Positions 1 to 18,538 of a stretch of 64,000 nt of DNA are shown in pieces (within the stretch, counting starts at the first letter, position 1; each line of letters starts with the position of its first letter). Made by a program: the position numbers and the translations under genes. The DNA is taken from the NCBI GenBank assembly GCA_029254375.1, contig JAQWXR010000003.1:1-64000 (forward strand), given 5' to 3'. This DNA is from Schleiferiaceae bacterium (GTDB lineage: Bacteria > Bacteroidota > Bacteroidia > Flavobacteriales > Schleiferiaceae). The notes under the pieces are model-generated. The model had not been told where the DNA came from. It ran no database searches and was given only the letters and a program-made list of their open reading frames with translations.

Positions 1-1542
1 GCCAAGCCGCACCAGTTGGAGCATATCTGGGATGCCGACAATGCCATTACGACGCAGTTTCAGTACAACACCAGCGGCAGCATCACGCAGATCGACGACC
101 CCAGTCAGGGCATCCCCCAAGAGTTTTATTGGAACGAGGCGCAGCAGCTCACGGGCGTGAAGAACCAACAAGGGGTGCACCACTACATCTACGACCACCA
201 GGGAGAGCGCATCATGAAGTCCTCGCTGATCACTTCGACGGTCTACCTCAACGACCAGGTCATCGATGATGTGAATAACCTAGATCCCTATACCGTCTAT
301 GTGAATCCCTTCTATGTGGTCACGGGGTTCATGGGAGGTGACCGCGTGTCAAAGCACTACTACATGAACCAGCAGCGCGTGGCCACGGACATTTCCATTA
401 ACTACGACCCCAACGGGAATGGTGGCGCGGAGGCTCGAGAGGCTTCCCCACGGGCAAACGCACAAAACCTAGCGCTTGTGGACCTATCGAAGGTGTTGCG
501 CGCGCTGGACCAACCCGAATTGGATACCACGGCACTAACCTTACCGCGTATTGAATCCGTTTATCCGGAACTCCAGCCATCATCCACCACCAGCACAGCT
601 CTCACCGAGAACATCACCAACCGAATTCTGTTCTGGTACCACCCGGACTACCTGGGCAATGTGGACCTAGTAACCGAAAAAGACGGCTATGCCTACGAAT
701 TCTTCGTCTACACCCCCTGGGGAGAAGAAATGCACCAATGGAACGCCAATACGTTCAATTTCAGCTCCCCCTACCGCTTTAACGGCAAAGAACTCGACCC
801 TGAAACCGGACTAGCCTATTACGGCGCCAGGTACTACCAAAATAAAATCGGAGTGTGGTTGAGTGTGGACCGCTTTGCTAATAAATATCCAAATGTGTCA
901 CCATATAGTTTTTGCTACAATAATCCTCAAATATTTAATGACCCAACAGGTGATACAATAGTAAATAAGGCACAATCTGGAACTGAAGAATATATAAGAT
1001 TAGAAAATGGAATATTAAATTTTAAAATTAAATGCCCATCGGCTTATGCCGAAATGCACGCTGCTCCCCAATTGATAGAAATAAACTTCTCTGATAATAA
1101 CCTAATTTCGGATTTAGGACGTGAATTAAATGGAAACACAACTACGAATTATTTGGTCGAAAATAATACTTCAATCTTGCCTCAATCACTAACTAGACTA
1201 GTTATAGAAAATGATGAGATTTTTCCTGAAAAAATATTCAACGGTATTTTTGAAATAAAAAGAGGTCATGACCCATCTGAGTGGATGACGATTTACACAA
1301 GAAACCAATCAATAGTGGAGGTTCAAGGGTTTCAGATTACTATAGATCGACATTTATCCGGATCTGAATTGAATTCAACAATAGGTCATGAATTTGGCCA
1401 TTCGCTTTTTGCACTTCAAAATCCGCTATTGAGTTATATATGGGGGTTAATACAGAATAATTCTCATCCAAATGGACGCGGACATGATAAATATAATCCC
1501 TCAGGACATGAAGCAGTATATTATGGCAATCAAGCAAGGTAA
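1..1542 (+). CDS. RHS repeat-associated core protein, C-terminal part with zincin-like toxin tip (5' truncated by window)
   Basis: The reading frame is open from base 1, so the gene starts outside the window. The visible part is the end of an RHS/YD-repeat shell followed by the conserved RHS core (DPETGLAYYGARYY, about residues 259-275 counted from the ATG at 16), ending at NNPQIFNDPTGD (about residue 310). RHS proteins encase a C-terminal toxin and release it after cleavage near this boundary. Past it the sequence turns AT-rich and unlike the core. This roughly 195-residue tip carries GHEFGHS (HExxH at residues 458-462), the zinc-binding motif of metallopeptidases, with later His residues (RGHDKY, SGHEA) as possible third ligands. 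I infer a metallopeptidase effector; family and target are unknown. The 3' end overlaps the next gene. An inactive or orphan tip cannot be excluded. Confidence 0.85.
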   Translation, partial: AKPHQLEHIWDADNAITTQFQYNTSGSITQIDDPSQGIPQEFYWNEAQQLTGVKNQQGVHHYIYDHQGERIMKSSLITSTVYLNDQVIDDVNNLDPYTVYVNPFYVVTGFMGGDRVSKHYYMNQQRVATDISINYDPNGNGGAEAREASPRANAQNLALVDLSKVLRALDQPELDTTALTLPRIESVYPELQPSSTTSTALTENITNRILFWYHPDYLGNVDLVTEKDGYAYEFFVYTPWGEEMHQWNANTFNFSSPYRFNGKELDPETGLAYYGARYYQNKIGVWLSVDRFANKYPNVSPYSFCYNNPQIFNDPTGDTIVNKAQSGTEEYIRLENGILNFKIKCPSAYAEMHAAPQLIEINFSDNNLISDLGRELNGNTTTNYLVENNTSILPQSLTRLVIENDEIFPEKIFNGIFEIKRGHDPSEWMTIYTRNQSIVEVQGFQITIDRHLSGSELNSTIGHEFGHSLFALQNPLLSYIWGLIQNNSHPNGRGHDKYNPSGHEAVYYGNQAR

Positions 1543-2050: not shown

Positions 2051-2425
2051 TATGGGTCACGGGATATTTCTGGGGACCTAAGGGTTAAAACAAAGATTTT
2101 CTCAAGCCGATAAAGGAAGAATTGGGTATCAATTACCCCAAGCTGACTTTTAGCTTCGCAGGGAGCATTATCCGCAAGCTTCATATTTGTTCAGTAATTG
2201 CTGAACCACGTTTTGGAATGCCCGGAGGCCTGCAAGTCTTAATGGGTCACGGGTTTCGGCCAAAGGGGACTTATGCCGAAAGGGCATATCGTAACATGTT
2301 ACGTTACGCCCTATTTCAGATGATTTTGCACCACTTGTAATCTGTAGTAGCCATATAATCAGAATATTACGGACCTCATTAGAGCGTAACGCCGTGTTAC
2401 GATCGGGCCAAAACGTAACATCATG
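2051..2425. other. Non-coding stretch after the RHS tip, with repeats
   Basis: These 375 bases hold no convincing gene; the 72-aa ORF at 2122-2340 has no recognisable feature. The stretch contains two copies of a 12-bp direct repeat, a small hairpin around TATGCC...GGGCATA (about 2274-2288), and the first two of three inverted repeats that run up to the stop codon of the next gene. It separates the AT-rich toxin tip from the mobile-element-like genes. Confidence 0.5.
2052..2253. repeat. 12-bp direct repeat ATGGGTCACGGG, two copies 190 bp apart
   Basis: ATGGGTCACGGG occurs at 2052-2063, immediately after the stop of the putative immunity gene, and again at 2242-2253. The copies are identical. 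They could be scars of cassette exchange behind the RHS gene, where displaced toxin tips and repeated core ends often accumulate, but chance or a regulatory role is also possible. Confidence 0.5.
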
Positions 2426-2430
2426 TTACG
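2290..2430. repeat. Three inverted repeats CGTAAC-N2..5-GTTACG
   Basis: Three copies share the half-sites CGTAAC and GTTACG: CGTAACATGTTACG at 2290-2303 (perfect 14-bp palindrome), CGTAAC-5 nt-GTTACG at 2385-2401, and CGTAACATCATGTTACG at 2414-2430. The third contains the stop codon of the minus-strand ATPase gene. Dyads of this kind are typical binding sites for dimeric DNA-binding proteins or plasmid-type replication and partition proteins. The varying centre (2 to 5 nt) is unusual for a rigid operator. No binding protein can be assigned from sequence alone. Confidence 0.6.
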
Positions 2431-3388
2431 CTTTATCCTTGGAGTCTTTTCGTGCGAGTATTCGGCTTACGCGCATTTTATTGACTCCTGCTTGGCGTGC
2501 AATTTCTGCTTGAGAGAGATCGGGGTTTTGAAAATGCAGAGCGAGGACTCGGTCGCTGATGCCGGGGTGGTCGGCGGCACGCAGCAAGTCGGACTCCTCG
2601 CAATAACCGTCAAACACAAATCCGAGTAATCCATTTCTTGGGGCAAGCCGGCATTTGACTACGTTTTCGGCGCCATAGTTGAGCATTGCCGAGCGCACCT
2701 TGATCTGCTTGATGTAGCGCTGGTCGGTGGACTCGCAGCCTTTACCGATGGCGATAAGGCTGTCGGCCAAGCGCGACAAGCCGGCAGATCCTGCGAGGTC
2801 TGCTTCGCTGATCGATAAACTCTTGTTGCGCTTGGGGGTATGGGCTAAGAGCATGATCGACAGGCGAAATTCCTCTTTAAGGACTTTCATCTCGCGCATA
2901 AAGTCAATGGCCTCCTGAGCGGTTTCAAGGGAATTCCCTGCGAAGTAGGATAGGTTGTCGATGATTAGCACACGGGAGCGGTAGCTTTCAATGTGGCTGC
3001 GGATTTCGGCAAAGACGTCTTGGTTCCCCACTCGCTGTGCTTGGCAGTCGGGATTGTAGCCGATTCGGTACAAATTGGGTGAGAAGGTGTAGGAAATTCC
3101 GGAATGGCTGTAGCGCTGCTCAAACTGCTTGTCGTTGAATTCAAAGTCATAGTACAGCACTCCCTGCCCCGGGACGCCAAGTTGAAATCCGGGGATTGCC
3201 GTCCCGCTGGCTATGGATTGGGCGACCTGTACGGCCAGCAGAGACTTCCCCACGTTGGTGTCGGCAAACAAGATGCACAGCTCCTGCTCAAACCAGAGTT
3301 CGTCGAAGAGCATCATGGGCGTGGGTATCTGCTTGGCGTCTTCCAGACAGCGGTTGGCGGTGCGCACGGTGAAGATGGGCGATTTCAT
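2426..3388 (-). CDS. AAA family ATPase, RepA/RecA-like helicase of mobile elements
   Basis: The 320-aa protein has a P-loop (ADTNVGKS, near residue 45), a Walker B strand (RVLIIDNLSY, near residue 140) and a later LLAHTPKR segment, the layout of RepA/RecA-like (AAA_25-type) ATPases that plasmids and integrative elements use for replication or DNA processing. The C-terminus adds a helix-turn-helix (DLSQAEIARQAGVNKMRVSRIL), which suggests direct DNA binding. The start ATG overlaps the stop of the 105-aa gene by 4 nt (ATGA), so translation is probably coupled. It is the last gene of a three-gene minus-strand cassette. The family call is confident; whether it still acts in replication of an excised element is inference. 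Confidence 0.8.
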   Translation of the reverse strand: MKSPIFTVRTANRCLEDAKQIPTPMMLFDELWFEQELCILFADTNVGKSLLAVQVAQSIASGTAIPGFQLGVPGQGVLYYDFEFNDKQFEQRYSHSGISYTFSPNLYRIGYNPDCQAQRVGNQDVFAEIRSHIESYRSRVLIIDNLSYFAGNSLETAQEAIDFMREMKVLKEEFRLSIMLLAHTPKRNKSLSISEADLAGSAGLSRLADSLIAIGKGCESTDQRYIKQIKVRSAMLNYGAENVVKCRLAPRNGLLGFVFDGYCEESDLLRAADHPGISDRVLALHFQNPDLSQAEIARQAGVNKMRVSRILARKDSKDKA

Positions 3389-3702
3389 GTTCCGTGGTAC
3401 AGGGCGTTAAGGGACAGGTAGTAGGGACAGCCCGCGGGACAGTCCTCCCGAAATCGATACACCGCCAAGACGGTGTTCACCTCGGGGTGGTGCTTGAGAA
3501 TGTGCCGCAAGGCACGACGAAGCGGCGTCTCCCCTATGGAATTCTCATTGGAGCCATCCAGAATCCGTTTCAAAACGTCTAGATGCCGCGCCATGGATTC
3601 CTTAGAAAGTGTGACGGCACCCTCTGCTGAGGATTCTGCAGCGAGCGCGGTGTCGATGGCGCAAATGAGATCCTGCAGCTCTGAGCGTTGGGTGCGGGTC
3701 AT
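3385..3702 (-). CDS. Hypothetical protein, 105 aa, middle gene of mobile-element cassette
   Basis: No family recognised. The protein is mostly helical in appearance, with a charged N-terminal half and a C-terminal FREDCPAGCPYYLS segment whose two cysteines could bind metal. It overlaps both neighbours by ATGA junctions (HTH gene upstream, ATPase gene downstream), strong evidence that it is a real gene co-translated with them. Bacteroidota integrative elements often carry such a small unknown protein between the excisionase-like gene and the ATPase. Confidence 0.65.
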   Translation of the reverse strand: MTRTQRSELQDLICAIDTALAAESSAEGAVTLSKESMARHLDVLKRILDGSNENSIGETPLRRALRHILKHHPEVNTVLAVYRFREDCPAGCPYYLSLNALYHGT

Positions 3703-3989
3703 TGCGCGGTGCCGCGTTGCTTGGCATCCAACCAGGCGTCGAGCTGGCTCTTGCGAAACAGCACGCGCTTTCCCTGCTTGATGTGGGGAATGCTTCCCTT
3801 GGAGGTATAGCCGTAGAGGGTATTCTTTGAGATGCGCAGGTACTCGACGGCTTCATCGACGGTTAGCAGCGGCTGCGGGTCAATGGTGATGATGGTCGGC
3901 ACGGGCTCTTCGCCCTCGCGAAGTGCCCGGTAGGATTCGCGGATTAACACTTGAAGTTCTTCTTTGCTGGTGAGAATGATGGGGTCCAT
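3699..3989 (-). CDS. Helix-turn-helix protein, excisionase-like (HTH_17 type)
   Basis: The 96-aa protein (start MDPIILTSKEEL, ATG at 3989; the longer track ORF runs through upstream repeats) carries a MerR/excisionase-type winged helix: LLTVDEAVEYLRISKNTLYGYT followed by GSIPHIKQGKRVLFRKSQLDAWL. This architecture is standard for small DNA-binding proteins of Bacteroidota conjugative and mobilizable elements, where they act as excisionases or local regulators. Two 15-bp direct repeats lie just upstream and are candidate binding sites. It overlaps the 105-aa gene by 4 nt. No integrase gene is visible nearby, so its partner, if any, is missing or outside the window. Confidence 0.85.
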   Translation of the reverse strand: MDPIILTSKEELQVLIRESYRALREGEEPVPTIITIDPQPLLTVDEAVEYLRISKNTLYGYTSKGSIPHIKQGKRVLFRKSQLDAWLDAKQRGTAQ

Positions 3990-4036
3990 GTGGCAGTTGT
4001 ATTTATGATTACTGCGCAAAGGTTTTGGGAGCCTGT

Positions 4037-4075
4037 CCCTTAGGGTCACCCCACCGAGTACCCTTAGGGTCACCC
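4037..4075. repeat. Two 15-bp direct repeats CCCTTAGGGTCACCC upstream of the HTH gene
   Basis: CCCTTAGGGTCACCC occurs at 4037-4051 and 4061-4075, offset by 24 bp, in the 85-bp gap between the stop of the 312-aa gene and the start of the HTH gene. Each copy contains the near-palindrome GGGTCACCC. Position suggests an operator or excisionase-binding repeat controlling the downstream cassette. Confidence 0.6.
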
Positions 4076-5013
4076 TAGATTCTCAGCTTCTGCATCTCTT
4101 TGTTGAATTTCAGCATGATGGATTCATTCCTGAGGTCCTCAATTAATGGCTTAATTCGGAGCATTCGCTTCAAAACCATGCGTTGATTGCCTTGAAAGGG
4201 GTCGCGGATTTTCTTGTAGAGGTTGTCGTATCCCCTTCCGCTTAAGGCCACCGTGAGCCGCGTGACGGCGGTCATGTCGCACTGGTTAATGTTGGCTTCA
4301 CGAAGCAGAAAGTGCATGACCATGGCCATCTCGGCGTTTTCAAGAGTTTTTGAGTCGCTGAAATCTCCGCCCTCGTCATGGTGCTCGTCTTCGTCCAAGC
4401 AAGTCTCCCGAATTTCTTCCATCAACTCTGGCATACAGGCCATGAGCTCCTTCAGCAAAAGCTCGGGCACCTCGACCAAATCCATTAGGGTCCGCTGGCT
4501 TGAGGTGAGAAGGGCGTTGATGGAGGGCTGCTCTAGAACCAGGACGGCCCACACCATTTTGGTAGCGAGCATGACCTTGTAAATAAAAGCCATCTCACTG
4601 TACATGCCGCGGCGGCAAATCTGCGGCACAGGGGCTATGGCATCGACAGGGTCGGTAAATTCCATGGCGTCTGCGCGGCCGTGAAAAAACTCACGTGCCG
4701 CGACAATCCATTCGCTGAGCCAAGCGCGGTTGCCGTCGTAGAATGTGCCGATGCAACGCTGCAGACCGCGCGTGTCCAATTCACCTATTCCGTTTGGAGA
4801 ATTACTGAGGTGCGTGCTTAGTATCTCGCGCAGTATCGGCCTAGCAAATTCAAGGCAATAAGGGAAAAAATACTCGGGGACCACATTGAACAGCCCCAAG
4901 TCCAACTCTTGAAATCGCCGGGATGGCTGAAATCGAGTCAGTTCATCCAATTTGTCACACAGGTCTTGGCACGGGGCCACTTCGTCCAAAGAGAGTAAGG
5001 TAAATGCGTTCAT
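4075..5013 (-). CDS. Hypothetical protein, 312 aa, associated with mobile-element cassette
   Basis: No domain is certain. I use the ATG at 5013 (MNAFTLLSLDEVAP); the longer ORF to 5058 begins with TTG and adds an implausible hydrophobic leader. The protein is acidic in the middle (DEDEHHDEGGD, about residues 210-220) and ends with a basic segment including GRGYDNLYKKIRDPF. From memory this end resembles the C-termini of unknown proteins carried next to excisionase-like and replication genes in Bacteroidota elements. It lies upstream of, and in the same direction as, the HTH/105-aa/ATPase cassette, separated by 85 nt that hold the direct repeats. Confidence 0.65.
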   Translation of the reverse strand: MNAFTLLSLDEVAPCQDLCDKLDELTRFQPSRRFQELDLGLFNVVPEYFFPYCLEFARPILREILSTHLSNSPNGIGELDTRGLQRCIGTFYDGNRAWLSEWIVAAREFFHGRADAMEFTDPVDAIAPVPQICRRGMYSEMAFIYKVMLATKMVWAVLVLEQPSINALLTSSQRTLMDLVEVPELLLKELMACMPELMEEIRETCLDEDEHHDEGGDFSDSKTLENAEMAMVMHFLLREANINQCDMTAVTRLTVALSGRGYDNLYKKIRDPFQGNQRMVLKRMLRIKPLIEDLRNESIMLKFNKEMQKLRI

Positions 5014-5500
5014 AGTGGCGACAAGTAACAGCAAAAAACCACCGACAATGATCCGCAAACCTGGAGGGCCAACACCTGTTAATAACCGTGAACCGAGGTT
5101 AAAAGACTATTATTTAACGCGTTATAATGGCAGAGATACCAAAAGTGTGCTCAAGTGCTGCTTAGAATTGCAGGTTTTTGCGCAATGAATAACTGTAAAT
5201 GTTGATAAATTATGGTTTTCAACCACCTGAAAGCGAACAGTTTGGAACACTTTCGGACGGTATGGTACAGGCAGATCATGGGACAAACGGCAGTTTTTGG
5301 CGCGACAAGTGTCGAAAAGCGAACAATCTCAATCAGCCGAGGAGTCCCCAAAAGAGGCTAGAACGACCACCCAAACGAACACAACAAACCCAAAATCATG
5401 ACTCAGCTGCACTGGCCAGAGGGTCGCATCTTTGCCGTCATTTGCGGACTCATTTCAACGTTTTGGTCTGATTTTGTATGCAAATTGTATGCAAATAATG
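5014..5500. other. Intergenic region between accessory cassette and tRNA-Asn fragment
   Basis: About 490 bases without a supported gene. ORFs of 60-90 aa on both strands look like noise. Visible structure: a 10-bp palindrome TAACGCGTTA at 5115-5124, and the tandem 11-mer at 5474-5495. The region should hold the promoter of the minus-strand 312-aa gene, but I see no clear -7 box. If the neighbouring tRNA fragment is an attachment site, this is where an integrase gene or integrase arm sites would be expected; no integrase is present. Confidence 0.45.
5474..5495. repeat. Perfect tandem 11-mer TTGTATGCAAA x2 next to the tRNA fragment
   Basis: TTGTATGCAAA is repeated head to tail (5474-5484 and 5485-5495), ending just before the terminator of the tRNA-Asn fragment. 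Short direct repeats beside a tRNA attachment site are typical integrase arm-type binding sites; this role is inferred. Confidence 0.5.
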
Positions 5501-5534
5501 AAAAAAGCACCTACGTCTTTCGATGTAAGTGCTT
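5501..5534 (-). terminator. Rho-independent terminator of the tRNA-Asn locus
   Basis: On the minus strand AAGCACTTACATC-GAAA-GACGTAGGTGCTT forms a 13-bp stem with one mismatch and one G-U pair, followed by a T-run. It lies directly after the 3' end of the tRNA-Asn fragment and is probably the native terminator of the original tRNA gene. Confidence 0.8.
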
Positions 5535-5545
5535 GATTTTAAGAG

Positions 5546-5590
5546 CTCCTCCTGCTGGACTTGAACCAGCGACCCTCTGATTAACAGTCA
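5546..5590 (-). pseudogene. 3' half of tRNA-Asn(GTT), candidate attachment site
   Basis: On the minus strand the sequence from the anticodon loop (CTGTTAA, anticodon GTT) through the 3' anticodon stem, T-arm (GCTGG TTCAAGT CCAGC) and 3' acceptor strand (AGGAGGA) matches a tRNA-Asn. Upstream of the anticodon loop it diverges after only a few stem bases: no TCCTCCT acceptor strand and no D-arm follow. So this is a 45-nt fragment, not a working tRNA. Such fragments are left when an element integrates into a tRNA gene by recombination at the anticodon loop. No integrase gene is visible on either side. Confidence 0.75.
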
Positions 5591-5833
5591 TAAACATAAG
5601 CCAATTAGGGCAAACCAAGGGTTCGATTACCACACTCTGCGTCGCAACTAACTGAACAACAGTACCATTATGTACCATTTTGTAACAGTGCTGGGTTGCT
5701 TTTTTTAGAGTTGCAAAAAAGCAACCCGCTAAGCAACCCAATGTGGGTACATTTCGTTACACCGGTTCGGACAAAAAAAATGCCCAAAACGTTGGTTTTG
5801 AGCACTTTGATACAGTTTGGTACTGTAGTCTTG
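5591..5833. other. Non-coding spacer between tRNA-Asn fragment and tRNA-Ser
   Basis: These 243 bases sit where the 5' half of tRNA-Asn should be. They hold a direct repeat GTACCATT (twice within about 5671-5690), a strong hairpin (5693-5727), a third GCAACCC copy just after it, and no gene. This may be a leftover end of an integrated element. Confidence 0.5.
5693..5727. terminator. Strong hairpin with T/A tracts, bidirectional terminator-like
   Basis: GGGTTGCTTTTTT and AAAAAAGCAACCC form a perfect 13-bp stem around a 9-nt loop. It could terminate transcription from either side, for example read-through from tRNA-Ser on the minus strand. Confidence 0.55.
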
Positions 5834-5920
5834 CGGAGAGAGGGGGATTCGAACCCCCGATACAGTTTCCCGTATACACACTTTCCAGGCGTGCTCCTTA
5901 AACCACTCGGACACCTCTCC
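5834..5920 (-). tRNA. tRNA-Ser(GGA)
   Basis: The minus strand folds into a complete tRNA: acceptor GGAGAGG/TCTCTCC (one G-U), D-arm, anticodon stem CACGC/GTGTG with loop CTGGAAA (anticodon GGA), a long variable arm (TATACGG-GAAA-CTGTAT) as expected for class II tRNA-Ser, and T-arm GGGGG TTCGAAT CCCCC. Discriminator base is G; CCA is not encoded. Confidence 0.95.
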
Positions 5921-9596: not shown

Positions 9597-12320
9597 TTAG
9601 CAGTCAAATGTTTTTTGGATGGTCGCTTTTTGAATATGGTGCGCAGCTTGGTGCGATCCAGAGGCAGAGGCAGCAGAGGCTGAAGGCGAAACACGCTGAA
9701 GCGGTAAATCAGTATTTGTTCGCAGGTAGGACCATGCACCCATGTTGGCGGGCTCTTCTTGGGCCCAAACTAACTTCACATTAGGGGCGTATTTGCCTAA
9801 TTCTGCCTCAAGGGCCTCCTCAGGCAAGGGATAGAGCTGCTCCAGTCGAATTAAGGCCGTCGTGGTGTCCTGACGATTTTCGCGCTCCTCTAGCAGTTCA
9901 TAGTAAAGCTTACCTGAACACAGCACCACCTTCTTCACGTTTTTGGGATCCAAATCGTCTCCCATCACAGGTTGGAACTGCCCTCCGCTGAGCTCTTCCA
10001 TGGTGGACGTGGCCTTGGGGTGACGCAACAAACTCTTGGGGCTCATCACCACCAAGGGCTTGCGGAATTTCTGATGCATCTGACGGCGCAGCAAATGGAA
10101 ATGGTTGGCTGGCGTGGTGGTGTTACACACAAACATGTTGTTTTGCGCACAAAGCTGAAGGAATCGCTCTAGACGTGCCGAAGAGTGCTCCGCCCCCTGT
10201 CCTTCATAGCCATGAGGAAGCAAAAGGACGATCCCACTCTGCACTTTCCACTTATCCTCTGCTGCTGCCAAGAACTGATCAATGATGATTTGGGCGCCGT
10301 TGGAGAAGTCGCCAAACTGCGCTTCCCAAATGACCAAGGTCTCCGGGCTCGCCATGGCGTAGCCATAGTCATAGCCCAGCACGGCATATTCAGACAAGTG
10401 CGAATTGTAGATCGCGAATCGGCCACGCTTATTGGCTACCTGATCTACTAAGCATACTTTTTCTTCGGAGTCTTCTAATTTAATAATGGCATGGCGGTGG
10501 CTAAACGTTCCGCGCTCTACATCTTCTCCAGAGATTCGAACATTAAAGCCATCCTGCAACAGGGTTCCGTAGGCCATCATTTCTGCCATACCCCAGTCCA
10601 GCGCATTGCGCTCAAAGGCCATTGCGGCGCGATCGCCAATGAGGCGAACAATCTTAGTGAAGAACTTTTTGTCGTCTGGAAGCGTCGTCAAGGCTTTAGC
10701 CACCCTATCTAAACGCTCACGCTCGACTTTCGTGTTTGGTCGGTGGTGCACATCGCCGTTTTTGGCGGCAGGGAAGTTTTGCCACTCATCCAGCATGAAT
10801 GGAACAATGACGTTCTTTTCGATTTTTTTGGCGGTATCAAACTGGCCCTCTAACATGCCCTTGAACTCCTCTTCCAATTGCTTTAGCCACGGGCTAGCCA
10901 CCTGACCCTCTCCAAGTAATTTCTGGAAGTAAATCTCCCGCGGGTTAGGATGGCGTGAGATCTCCTTGTATAGCAAGGGCTGGGTGAAGCGCGGTTCATC
11001 CCCCTCGTTGTGCCCGTATTTACGGTAACACAAGAGATCTATAAAAACATCGCGATGGAAACGCTGACGGTATTCCATCGCAAAGCGAAATGCGTGTACT
11101 ACCGCTTCTACGTCATCCCCATTCACATGAAGGACAGGGGCTAACACTACTTTGGCCACATCGGTGCAGTACGTGGATGAACGCGCATCTATGTAGTTTG
11201 TGGTAAAGCCCACCTGGTTGTTGATCACCAAATGAATGGTGCCACCGGTGGAATACCCAGCAAGGCGCTCCATCTGCAACGTTTCGTAAACAACGCCCTG
11301 TCCTGCCACCGCGGCATCCCCATGAACCAAAATGGGCAGTACGTGATCAAAATTATTGTTGTATTTCGTGTTGCCTTTCGCACGAGCAATGCCCACCACA
11401 ATGGGATCAACCGCCTCCAAATGGGAGGGATTGGGTGCGATGTTCATCTTGATCTTCTTCTGGTTGGCTAAGGTGCGCTCGGTTGAATAGCCCAAATGGT
11501 ACTTTACATCGCCGTCAAAATCATCTTCGGCAAATTCTTTCCCTTCAAATTCAGAGAAAATCTGCGACGCTGGCTTTCCGAATACATTCGTTAAAACATT
11601 CAATCGACCTCGGTGCGCCATCCCGAGCACTACTTCTTTTACGCCTAACTCTGCGCCACGCTGAAGCATAAAGTCCAAACCGGGAATGAGCGATTCAGCT
11701 CCTTCGATGGAAAAGCGCTTTTGACCTACGAACTTGGTATTCAAGAATGACTCAAAGGCCACCGCTTCATTGAGCTTGTGTAAAATATGGTGTTTTTCCG
11801 TCTGACTGAGAATCGGGTAATTGTCATTGGGGTGAATGAAGGACTGAACCCACTTGATCACATCAGGTTGACGAACATACATGTACTCCACCCCAATGGA
11901 ACGACAGTAAATCGCTTCGAGGTGGGCAACAATTTCACGCAATGAGGCCGGACCAGGCAAGCCTACCTCCATGGCCGCTTGAAACACTAAATCCAAATCT
12001 GAGGCATGTAGCCGGAAGTTCTCAAGATCTAGTGTTGGACTATATGCCCTACGCTGACGTACTGGATTGGTATGGGTAAAGAGGTGTCCGCGGGTTCGAT
12101 AACCATTGATCAAATCGAGGACGGCAAATTCTTTGCGAACCTCATCGGGAACGGCTGTCTCTAACTCAAGCAGGTCGCCATATTCCGAACGTGAAAAGTC
12201 ATATCCCTGAAAAAATGATCGCCACGAAGGTTCAACCTCATCTGGATTATTAACATACTGTTCGTAGAGGTCATCCAGAAAGCCAACATGTGAGGTTCCT
12301 AAGAAGGAAAAGCGGTCCAT
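9597..12320 (-). CDS. sucA: 2-oxoglutarate dehydrogenase E1 component
   Basis: The 907-aa thiamine diphosphate enzyme decarboxylates 2-oxoglutarate and passes the succinyl group to SucB. It begins with the short N-terminal E1o motif (VGFLDDLYEQYVNNP) that binds the complex core, and contains LGMAHRGRLNVL, VHGDAAVAGQGVVYET (near residue 333) and HNEGDEPRFTQP. Length fits the family. A minus-strand box TAATTTTG at 12343-12350 is a likely promoter 22 nt upstream. It heads the run sucA-sucB-tatD-ansA. Confidence 0.97.
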   Translation of the reverse strand: MDRFSFLGTSHVGFLDDLYEQYVNNPDEVEPSWRSFFQGYDFSRSEYGDLLELETAVPDEVRKEFAVLDLINGYRTRGHLFTHTNPVRQRRAYSPTLDLENFRLHASDLDLVFQAAMEVGLPGPASLREIVAHLEAIYCRSIGVEYMYVRQPDVIKWVQSFIHPNDNYPILSQTEKHHILHKLNEAVAFESFLNTKFVGQKRFSIEGAESLIPGLDFMLQRGAELGVKEVVLGMAHRGRLNVLTNVFGKPASQIFSEFEGKEFAEDDFDGDVKYHLGYSTERTLANQKKIKMNIAPNPSHLEAVDPIVVGIARAKGNTKYNNNFDHVLPILVHGDAAVAGQGVVYETLQMERLAGYSTGGTIHLVINNQVGFTTNYIDARSSTYCTDVAKVVLAPVLHVNGDDVEAVVHAFRFAMEYRQRFHRDVFIDLLCYRKYGHNEGDEPRFTQPLLYKEISRHPNPREIYFQKLLGEGQVASPWLKQLEEEFKGMLEGQFDTAKKIEKNVIVPFMLDEWQNFPAAKNGDVHHRPNTKVERERLDRVAKALTTLPDDKKFFTKIVRLIGDRAAMAFERNALDWGMAEMMAYGTLLQDGFNVRISGEDVERGTFSHRHAIIKLEDSEEKVCLVDQVANKRGRFAIYNSHLSEYAVLGYDYGYAMASPETLVIWEAQFGDFSNGAQIIIDQFLAAAEDKWKVQSGIVLLLPHGYEGQGAEHSSARLERFLQLCAQNNMFVCNTTTPANHFHLLRRQMHQKFRKPLVVMSPKSLLRHPKATSTMEELSGGQFQPVMGDDLDPKNVKKVVLCSGKLYYELLEERENRQDTTTALIRLEQLYPLPEEALEAELGKYAPNVKLVWAQEEPANMGAWSYLRTNTDLPLQRVSPSASAASASGSHQAAHHIQKATIQKTFDC

Positions 12321-17405: not shown

Positions 17406-18538
17406 GCCTCTAAGGTACCAAGGCCTCCTGCCGCCACAAAGCCCTCCATCGCAATCCGGTCGCTTAGGAACAGACCCTCATCGCTGAGCACCCATGCATT
17501 GGCCGTTTGTATCATTAGGCCCTGCGCGATGTACGTAGACCAAAGATTATCCAAGGTACTAGCGTAGGCTCCCACTGAGGTTCGAAGCAATCCTTCCATT
17601 CGTCGAAGTTGGGTCATAATCTGTTCATTGACCAACTCCTCAGGGCGAAGCTGCTCCTCTTCAAACCACGATTGGCTTGTTCCAACCTGCCGCAAATACT
17701 GGCCATTATTAGAGACATTCCAGCGCCGAACAGAGGTCCCATCAAAAGAGTGTGCACCTGGTCCAAGTCCTACATATGAAGCCCCCGACCAGTAGGCCGA
17801 ATTGTGCCGAGAGCGATAGCCCGGTAGCGAAGCATTACTCAATTCATACGGCTCCCAGCCCTCTTCTCTCAGCTGCGAGCGAAGCCACAAAAAGTCTTCG
17901 ATCGCTCGATCTTCTTTTGGCGCTTGAGACAGGCCCCGGCGTATATGTTGATGTAAGGCCGTGCGCTCTTCTACCGTCAATGCATAGGTGGATAAGTGCG
18001 GAACCCCTAAGGCCAGCGCCTCCCCCACATTATCCTGCCATTCACCCAGACTCGTATCTGGCAATCCATAGATCAAATCGACTGAAATTGACGCTATACC
18101 GGCATCTTGTGCCCGTCTAATTCCATCGCGTGCATCCTGCCCACTGTGGCTCCGATTCATCCACTGCAAACGACGGTCTACAAAGCTTTGAATTCCCACA
18201 CTTAATCGGTTCACTCCCAATGTCTTCCAACCATTTAAAGCCTCATGACTTAAATCCTCTGGGTTCGCCTCTAAGGTGAATTCTCCTCCTGATATCAATG
18301 GGAAATTATTTGAAAAACTGTCACAGATTTCTTGAGCCATTGCAAATGGGAGAACGGAAGGACTCCCGCCACCCCAATACCAAGTTTGCTTTGGGTGCGG
18401 CTCCTCCGAACGGAGCTTCGCTTCCACTTGGAGCTTTTCTACCATCTGTGGCAGCGTATTTAGCTGCGTCGAAAAGTGAAAATCACAGTAATGGCAAGCC
18501 TTTCTACAATAAGGCACGTGCAAATACAGGCCGGCCAT
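17402..18538 (-). CDS. hemW: Radical SAM heme chaperone HemW
   Basis: The 378-aa protein begins MAGLYLHVPYC and has the radical SAM cluster motif C11xxxC15xxC18 (CRKACHYC), then YWGGGSPSVL and the HemW/HemN-like C-terminal domain. HemW delivers heme to respiratory enzymes; it is often misannotated as coproporphyrinogen oxidase. The tracked start at 18541 is TTG; the ATG at 18538 shares one base with the kinase stop (TGATG), so translation is probably coupled to it. It overlaps the cyclase gene by 4 nt. Confidence 0.9.
   Translation of the reverse strand: MAGLYLHVPYCRKACHYCDFHFSTQLNTLPQMVEKLQVEAKLRSEEPHPKQTWYWGGGSPSVLPFAMAQEICDSFSNNFPLISGGEFTLEANPEDLSHEALNGWKTLGVNRLSVGIQSFVDRRLQWMNRSHSGQDARDGIRRAQDAGIASISVDLIYGLPDTSLGEWQDNVGEALALGVPHLSTYALTVEERTALHQHIRRGLSQAPKEDRAIEDFLWLRSQLREEGWEPYELSNASLPGYRSRHNSAYWSGASYVGLGPGAHSFDGTSVRRWNVSNNGQYLRQVGTSQSWFEEEQLRPEELVNEQIMTQLRRMEGLLRTSVGAYASTLDNLWSTYIAQGLMIQTANAWVLSDEGLFLSDRIAMEGFVAAGGLGTLEA

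What the first reader, a model, noticed from the sequence alone, without database searches (positions are those of the whole stretch)
5546..5590. Orphan 3' half of tRNA-Asn with its terminator: an attachment-site scar
Seen: sequence from the anticodon loop to the 3' end of tRNA-Asn plus a terminator, but no 5' half. Known: tyrosine integrases recombine at anticodon loops and leave a 3' tRNA fragment at the far end of the element. The geometry puts the original element on the high-coordinate side of the fragment, yet only about 240 bp separate it from tRNA-Ser, so a deletion or a second event must have occurred.
Basis: partly seen in the sequence, partly recalled or inferred. Interest (0 to 1): 0.55.

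Follow-up and report, generated by a model that had tools for sequence, protein, structure and literature searches.

The report
Mobile element's tRNA-Asn end cassette
The orphan half-tRNA is not a scar left in the host chromosome but the end piece that a mobile DNA element carries to rebuild the tRNA gene it inserts into; here the element sits at an abnormal place beside another tRNA gene, among remnants of earlier insertions, which is a neat but fundamentally familiar situation.

Summary
In detail: window 5546-5590 (-) is an exact 3' half of tRNA-Asn(GTT) with a hairpin terminator and no 5' half. The half, its terminator and 3.1 kb on the LOW-coordinate side (2454-5590) are 92.7% identical to congener G005, where they follow an intact tRNA-Asn. 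They are the left end of a tRNA-targeting tyrosine-integrase element ('N'), not host sequence displaced by an element on the high side. The T-stem differs from the host's own tRNA-Asn. The element's other end (same arm repeats, intact integrase) is probably own contig C32, which synteny with G014 places on the far side of the same tRNA-Ser locus; both ends carry the 14-bp core GACTGTTAATCAGA. The 240 bp up to tRNA-Ser are also element debris: 5642-5832 is the left end of a tRNA-Ser-targeting element ('S'), and 5591-5615 a truncated second N right end. Most likely N inserted in tandem beside an older N copy, and a deletion fused S and N remnants, removing both of those integrases. Ordinary kind, well-preserved example. 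In relatives the same N end is fused to Asn, Arg, Ala and CAT tRNAs.

The parts
5833..5920 (-). tRNA-Ser(GGA), intact; target of the S element
   Evidence: ARAGORN; Rfam 51.8 bits
5642..5832 (-). left end of S element (own terminator 5777-5808, arm-like GGTAC repeats), integrase lost
   Evidence: 82% to G008:C18 next to tRNA-Ser and a 415-aa tyrosine integrase; also at tRNA-Ser in G035, G068, G069, G110
5591..5615 (-). truncated second copy of the N right end
   Evidence: 22/25 identical to own C32 right end, 0 of 2000 shuffles as good; only these two places, both own, carry the att-adjacent motif among 88 family genomes, apart from one 3-mismatch hit elsewhere
5576..5589 (-). attachment core GACTGTTAATCAGA, repeated at C32:4079-4092
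5546..5590 (-). 3' half of tRNA-Asn(GTT), the element's tRNA-restoring cassette
   Evidence: 46 nt identical to intact congener genes
5499..5534 (-). element-borne hairpin terminator
   Evidence: same in G005, G012, G003
5475..5495 (-). two direct TTTGCATACA repeats, likely integrase arm sites
   Evidence: same pair at the C32 right end
4075..5058 (-). unknown 327-aa protein of the N element
   Evidence: 90% in G005, 72% in G012, both directly behind the left end; no Pfam or PHROG match
3699..4073 (-). HTH_17, excisionase-like protein
   Evidence: Pfam 4e-17, PHROG excisionase
3385..3702 (-). 105-aa protein of unknown function, conserved in N elements
2426..3388 (-). AAA_25 ATPase, DnaB/RepA-like
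   Evidence: Pfam 6e-20; relatives across Bacteroidota
2054..2449 (-). further N backbone, 81% to G005
16..1542 (+). RHS-like cargo gene at the contig start
   Evidence: weak Pfam RHS_repeat; G110 element carries a related gene

Best explanation
The fragment is the tRNA-restoring cassette at the left end of an integrative element (N) that fills the low-coordinate side. In the element's circular form the order is right end - core GACTGTTAATCAGA - rest of the tRNA-Asn 3' half - terminator - arm repeats. Insertion into a tRNA-Asn joins the host 5' half to this cassette and rebuilds the gene, the state seen in G005. Here the same right-core-left order stands alone between tRNA-Ser and the element. 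Inferred history: an S element inserted at tRNA-Ser; an N-type element entered the same hot spot; a second N inserted in tandem at the first one's core; a deletion then fused the S left end (5642) to the last ~25 bp of the first N (5615-5591), removing both of those integrases. The second N remains, from window 5590 through a contig break to C32:4092. Shown: identity of the left end and the side it lies on, the S end, the right-end remnant, the 14-bp core at both ends, synteny of C32. Inferred: order of events, linkage of C47 and C32, integrase chemistry.
For: 92.7% identity of 2454-5590 to G005 behind an intact tRNA-Asn; the same body 85.9% behind tRNA-Arg in G012; a different T-stem from the host gene; C32 has the right end, arm repeats and a tyrosine integrase, and its far flank is syntenic with G014 next to tRNA-Ser; S left end with integrase in G008; right-end remnant 22/25, 0 of 2000 shuffles; tandem junctions with orphan halves in G110 and G026; no close S integrase left in the own genome.
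Against: C47 and C32 are not physically joined in the assembly. The remnant is only 25 bp. The junction 5591-5641 is seen in this one assembly. In G014 the core beside the same flank is inverted, which this history does not explain.
Confidence: 0.65

Rival explanations
1. N inserted once, into a fortuitous non-tRNA site beside the S remnant; 5591-5615 is target sequence, not the end of a former N copy.
For: Needs one event fewer; only the 14-bp core is strictly shared by both junctions. The far flank (TTCATG...) is not a tRNA.
Against: 5591-5615 matches the N right end at 22/25, which is not expected of an unrelated target; tandem N junctions exist in relatives.
Confidence: 0.17
2. The join between tRNA-Ser/S end and the N left end is an assembly chimera of the metagenome-derived genome; N really sits elsewhere, for example as a circle or in a tandem array.
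For: The junction is seen in one draft genome only; both contig ends lie in repeats.
Against: No shared word between S end and N end that would mislead an assembler. C32, the presumed other end, independently joins N to the flank that lies beyond tRNA-Ser in G014.
Confidence: 0.12
3. One reading: a host remnant (attR) of a tRNA-Asn that once stood here, with its native terminator, the element having been on the high side.
For: A 3' half with a terminator looks like a displaced tDNA fragment.
Against: Half, terminator and 3.1 kb beyond are element in G005 and, apart from the tRNA part, in G012. No relative has tRNA-Asn here. The T-stem differs from the host's own gene.
Confidence: 0.05

Closest known systems
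tRNA-targeting tyrosine-integrase genomic islands (Islander, PMC4383910)
   Same: attP holds a tDNA 3' fragment that restores the target; anticodon-centred crossover; tandem arrays known
   Different: The cassette here stands beside a different tRNA (Ser) and is not joined to a 5' half; the element's two ends are on separate contigs
10K genomic island of Riemerella anatipestifer (PMC6764341)
   Same: Flavobacteriales island of about 10 kb at a tRNA, with tyrosine integrase; excision and integration shown by experiment
   Different: Targets tRNA-Arg with a 53-bp repeat; no sequence comparison made here
Element behind tRNA-Asn in congener G005 (Flavobacteriales bacterium UBA972) and behind tRNA-Arg(ACG) in G012 (Cryomorphaceae bacterium Ww394)
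   Same: Same genes and left end, 92.7% and 85.9% DNA identity
   Different: Both sit behind a complete tRNA; G012 carries a tRNA-Arg cassette
Tycheposons (marine integrative elements, as described in PMC10872708)
   Same: tRNA at the border plus a tyrosine recombinase in pelagic bacteria; several different tRNA targets
   Different: Described as large cargo elements in other phyla; primary paper not available here, no sequence comparison made

Membership tests
tRNA-targeting tyrosine-integrase island | Element end carries a 3' fragment of the target tRNA that restores the gene on insertion | tested here: met
   Same left end completes an intact tRNA-Asn in G005
tRNA-targeting tyrosine-integrase island | In this genome the element is bounded by an intact tRNA and a fragment of the same tRNA | tested here: not met
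   No 5' half at 5591; the intact tRNA-Asn is on C41
tRNA-targeting tyrosine-integrase island | Tyrosine integrase within the element | tested here: inconclusive
   418-aa integrase beside the matching right end on C32; linkage to C47 rests on synteny
tRNA-targeting tyrosine-integrase island | Direct repeats of the core at both ends | tested here: met
   GACTGTTAATCAGA at 5576-5589(-) and C32:4079-4092, on two contigs
tRNA-targeting tyrosine-integrase island | Excision as a circle | not testable with these tools
   No reads available
Integrative and mobilizable element (IME) | Relaxase or other mobilization gene and origin of transfer | tested here: inconclusive
   None among the window genes scanned; the middle of the element is not assembled
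Tycheposon | Shared recombinase lineage and gene modules of tycheposons | not tested
   Reference sequences not fetched

The most novel reading that the evidence does not exclude
This Bacteroidota element family changes targets by swapping a whole tRNA-3'-half cassette at a fixed boundary while keeping terminator, arm sites and body: similar N ends sit behind tRNA-Asn, Arg(ACG), Ala(GGC) and CAT tRNAs. The window, with a Ser-type and an Asn-type cassette in series, could be a retargeting intermediate rather than a decayed array.
Probability: 0.12. Interest if true: 0.6.

Novelty: new member of a known kind. Interest (0 to 1): 0.33.

Why it matters
It shows how an orphan half-tRNA can be read the wrong way round: without relatives one cannot tell a host remnant (attR) from the element's own restoring cassette, and the two put the element on opposite sides. 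It also points to an element family in marine Flavobacteriales whose conserved end is fused to different tRNA 3' halves, a tractable system for asking how integrases change targets.

Tried and rejected
Host-remnant reading with the element on the high side: rejected. tRNA-Asn beside tRNA-Ser in relatives: none found. Direct overlap of C47 and C32: both start with the same 247-bp RHS core in the same orientation and then diverge, so no overlap joins them. Viral contigs searched with the left-end and junction patterns: no exact match. The AAA protein against plasmids: only distant (<40%) relatives in Bacteroidales plasmids. S integrase elsewhere in the own genome: only weak hits to other tyrosine recombinases. 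Rfam hits RAGATH-19 and Plastid-psbl-rps4 in this stretch are below their gathering scores and treated as chance or tRNA similarity.

Full report
What is there. Reading the minus strand, the window has tRNA-Ser(GGA) at 5920-5833, a non-coding stretch to 5591, then an exact 3' half of tRNA-Asn(GTT) at 5590-5546, a hairpin terminator (5534-5499) and two direct repeats TTTGCATACA. Behind them lie genes for an unknown 327-aa protein, an HTH_17/excisionase-like protein, a 105-aa protein and an AAA_25 ATPase, then RHS-like cargo up to the start of contig C47, which is window base 1. The window genome (G000, 53 contigs, 88.5% complete) has one intact tRNA-Asn match, on C41, with a different T-stem. 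Named relatives of the element come from Cryomorphaceae/Flavobacteriales metagenome-assembled genomes.

Which side is the element? In congener G005 the same sequence, from the tRNA 3' half through 3.1 kb of the same genes, is 92.7% identical and follows a complete tRNA-Asn. In congener G012 the same body (85.9%) follows a complete tRNA-Arg(ACG). The 3' half, terminator and arm repeats are therefore the element's left end, and the element lies towards low coordinates.

The other end. Own contig C32 has a 418-aa tyrosine integrase, the same arm repeats, and the sequence GTTTGCCTGATTTGGCTTATGTTTAC-GACTGTTAATCAGA-TTCATG. From there to its end C32 matches G014:C290 at 80-86%: an X-Pro dipeptidyl-peptidase gene, an arylsulfotransferase-like gene and a further gene. 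In G014 this stretch lies directly beyond tRNA-Ser(GGA), with only an IS and a partial tRNA-Asn 3' half between. So C47 and C32 are, by synteny, the two sides of one tRNA-Ser locus, and the element between them has the 14-bp core at both ends. Both contigs begin with the same 247-bp RHS core, so the assembly probably broke at a repeated RHS gene. The G110 element (10.2 kb, behind tRNA-Asn) has related genes and the same arrangement of ends, with the integrase next to the right end.

What fills the 240 bp. 5642-5832 is 82% identical to the left end of an element at tRNA-Ser(GGA) in G008, where a 415-aa tyrosine integrase follows, and related ends are found at tRNA-Ser(TGA) in G035, G068, G069 and G110. 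G012 and G014 have a different terminator after tRNA-Ser, taken as native. 5591-5615 matches the N right end (22/25; 0 of 2000 shuffles as good). The right-core-left order in the window is thus the order of an element circle or of a tandem junction. Tandem junctions with orphan 3' halves exist in G110:C336 and, at a contig end, in G026:C55.

Mechanism. Best reading: accretion at a tRNA-Ser hot spot, tandem insertion of a second N at the first one's core, then a deletion that fused the S left end to the last ~25 bp of the first N and removed both of those integrases. No close S integrase remains in the assembly. The order of events is inferred. In G014 the core beside the same flank is inverted, which this history does not explain.

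Comparison with the known. tRNA-fragment attachment sites, anticodon-centred crossover and tandem arrays are all described (PMC4383910), and tRNA fragments from integration are widespread (PMC9897764). A Flavobacteriales island at tRNA-Arg has been shown to integrate and excise (PMC6764341). The thing is ordinary in kind. The less familiar part, seen in passing, is that similar N ends sit behind Asn, Arg, Ala and CAT tRNAs, all sharing TGACT at the 5' side of the anticodon loop. That fits the known habit of related integrases using one sub-position in different tRNAs (Williams 2002, known to me and cited in PMC6764341 and PMC9897764, not read here), but the clean cassette boundary at the tRNA 3' end deserves a test.

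Noticed in passing
L090/L123 (G012:C1), L091 (G003:C39), L094 (G098:C43), L095 (G087:C38), L092 (G097:C4), L093 (G098:C68): The N-type left end (terminator plus twin arm repeats) is fused exactly at the tRNA 3' end to Arg(ACG), Ala(GGC) and CAT tRNA 3' halves as well as Asn; similar terminator-plus-repeat ends stand behind tRNA-Lys and CAT tRNAs in other Bacteroidota.
   Followed up: partly
L043 (G014:C290) 9844-9904 and L060 (own C32) 4079-4110: The same chromosomal flank (ATGAATCTGA / TCAGATTCAT) is joined to a tRNA-Asn 3' half in G014 but to the N right end in the window genome, with the near-palindromic core in opposite orientation.
   Followed up: partly
window 1-247 and G000:C32:1-247: Two contigs of the genome start with the same RHS core (98%) and then diverge into different tips.
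   Followed up: partly
L111 (G008:C4) about 2930-3000: A degenerate tRNA-Ser 3' end with a native-type terminator before the X-Pro peptidase gene looks like a genuine host-side scar of the S element in G008.
   Followed up: no
L042 (G012:C16) end, about 17420-17452: In G012 the contig downstream of the same tRNA-Ser ends in a T-arm-like sequence (GAGGGTTCGAATCCC), suggesting yet another element junction at this hot spot.
   Followed up: no
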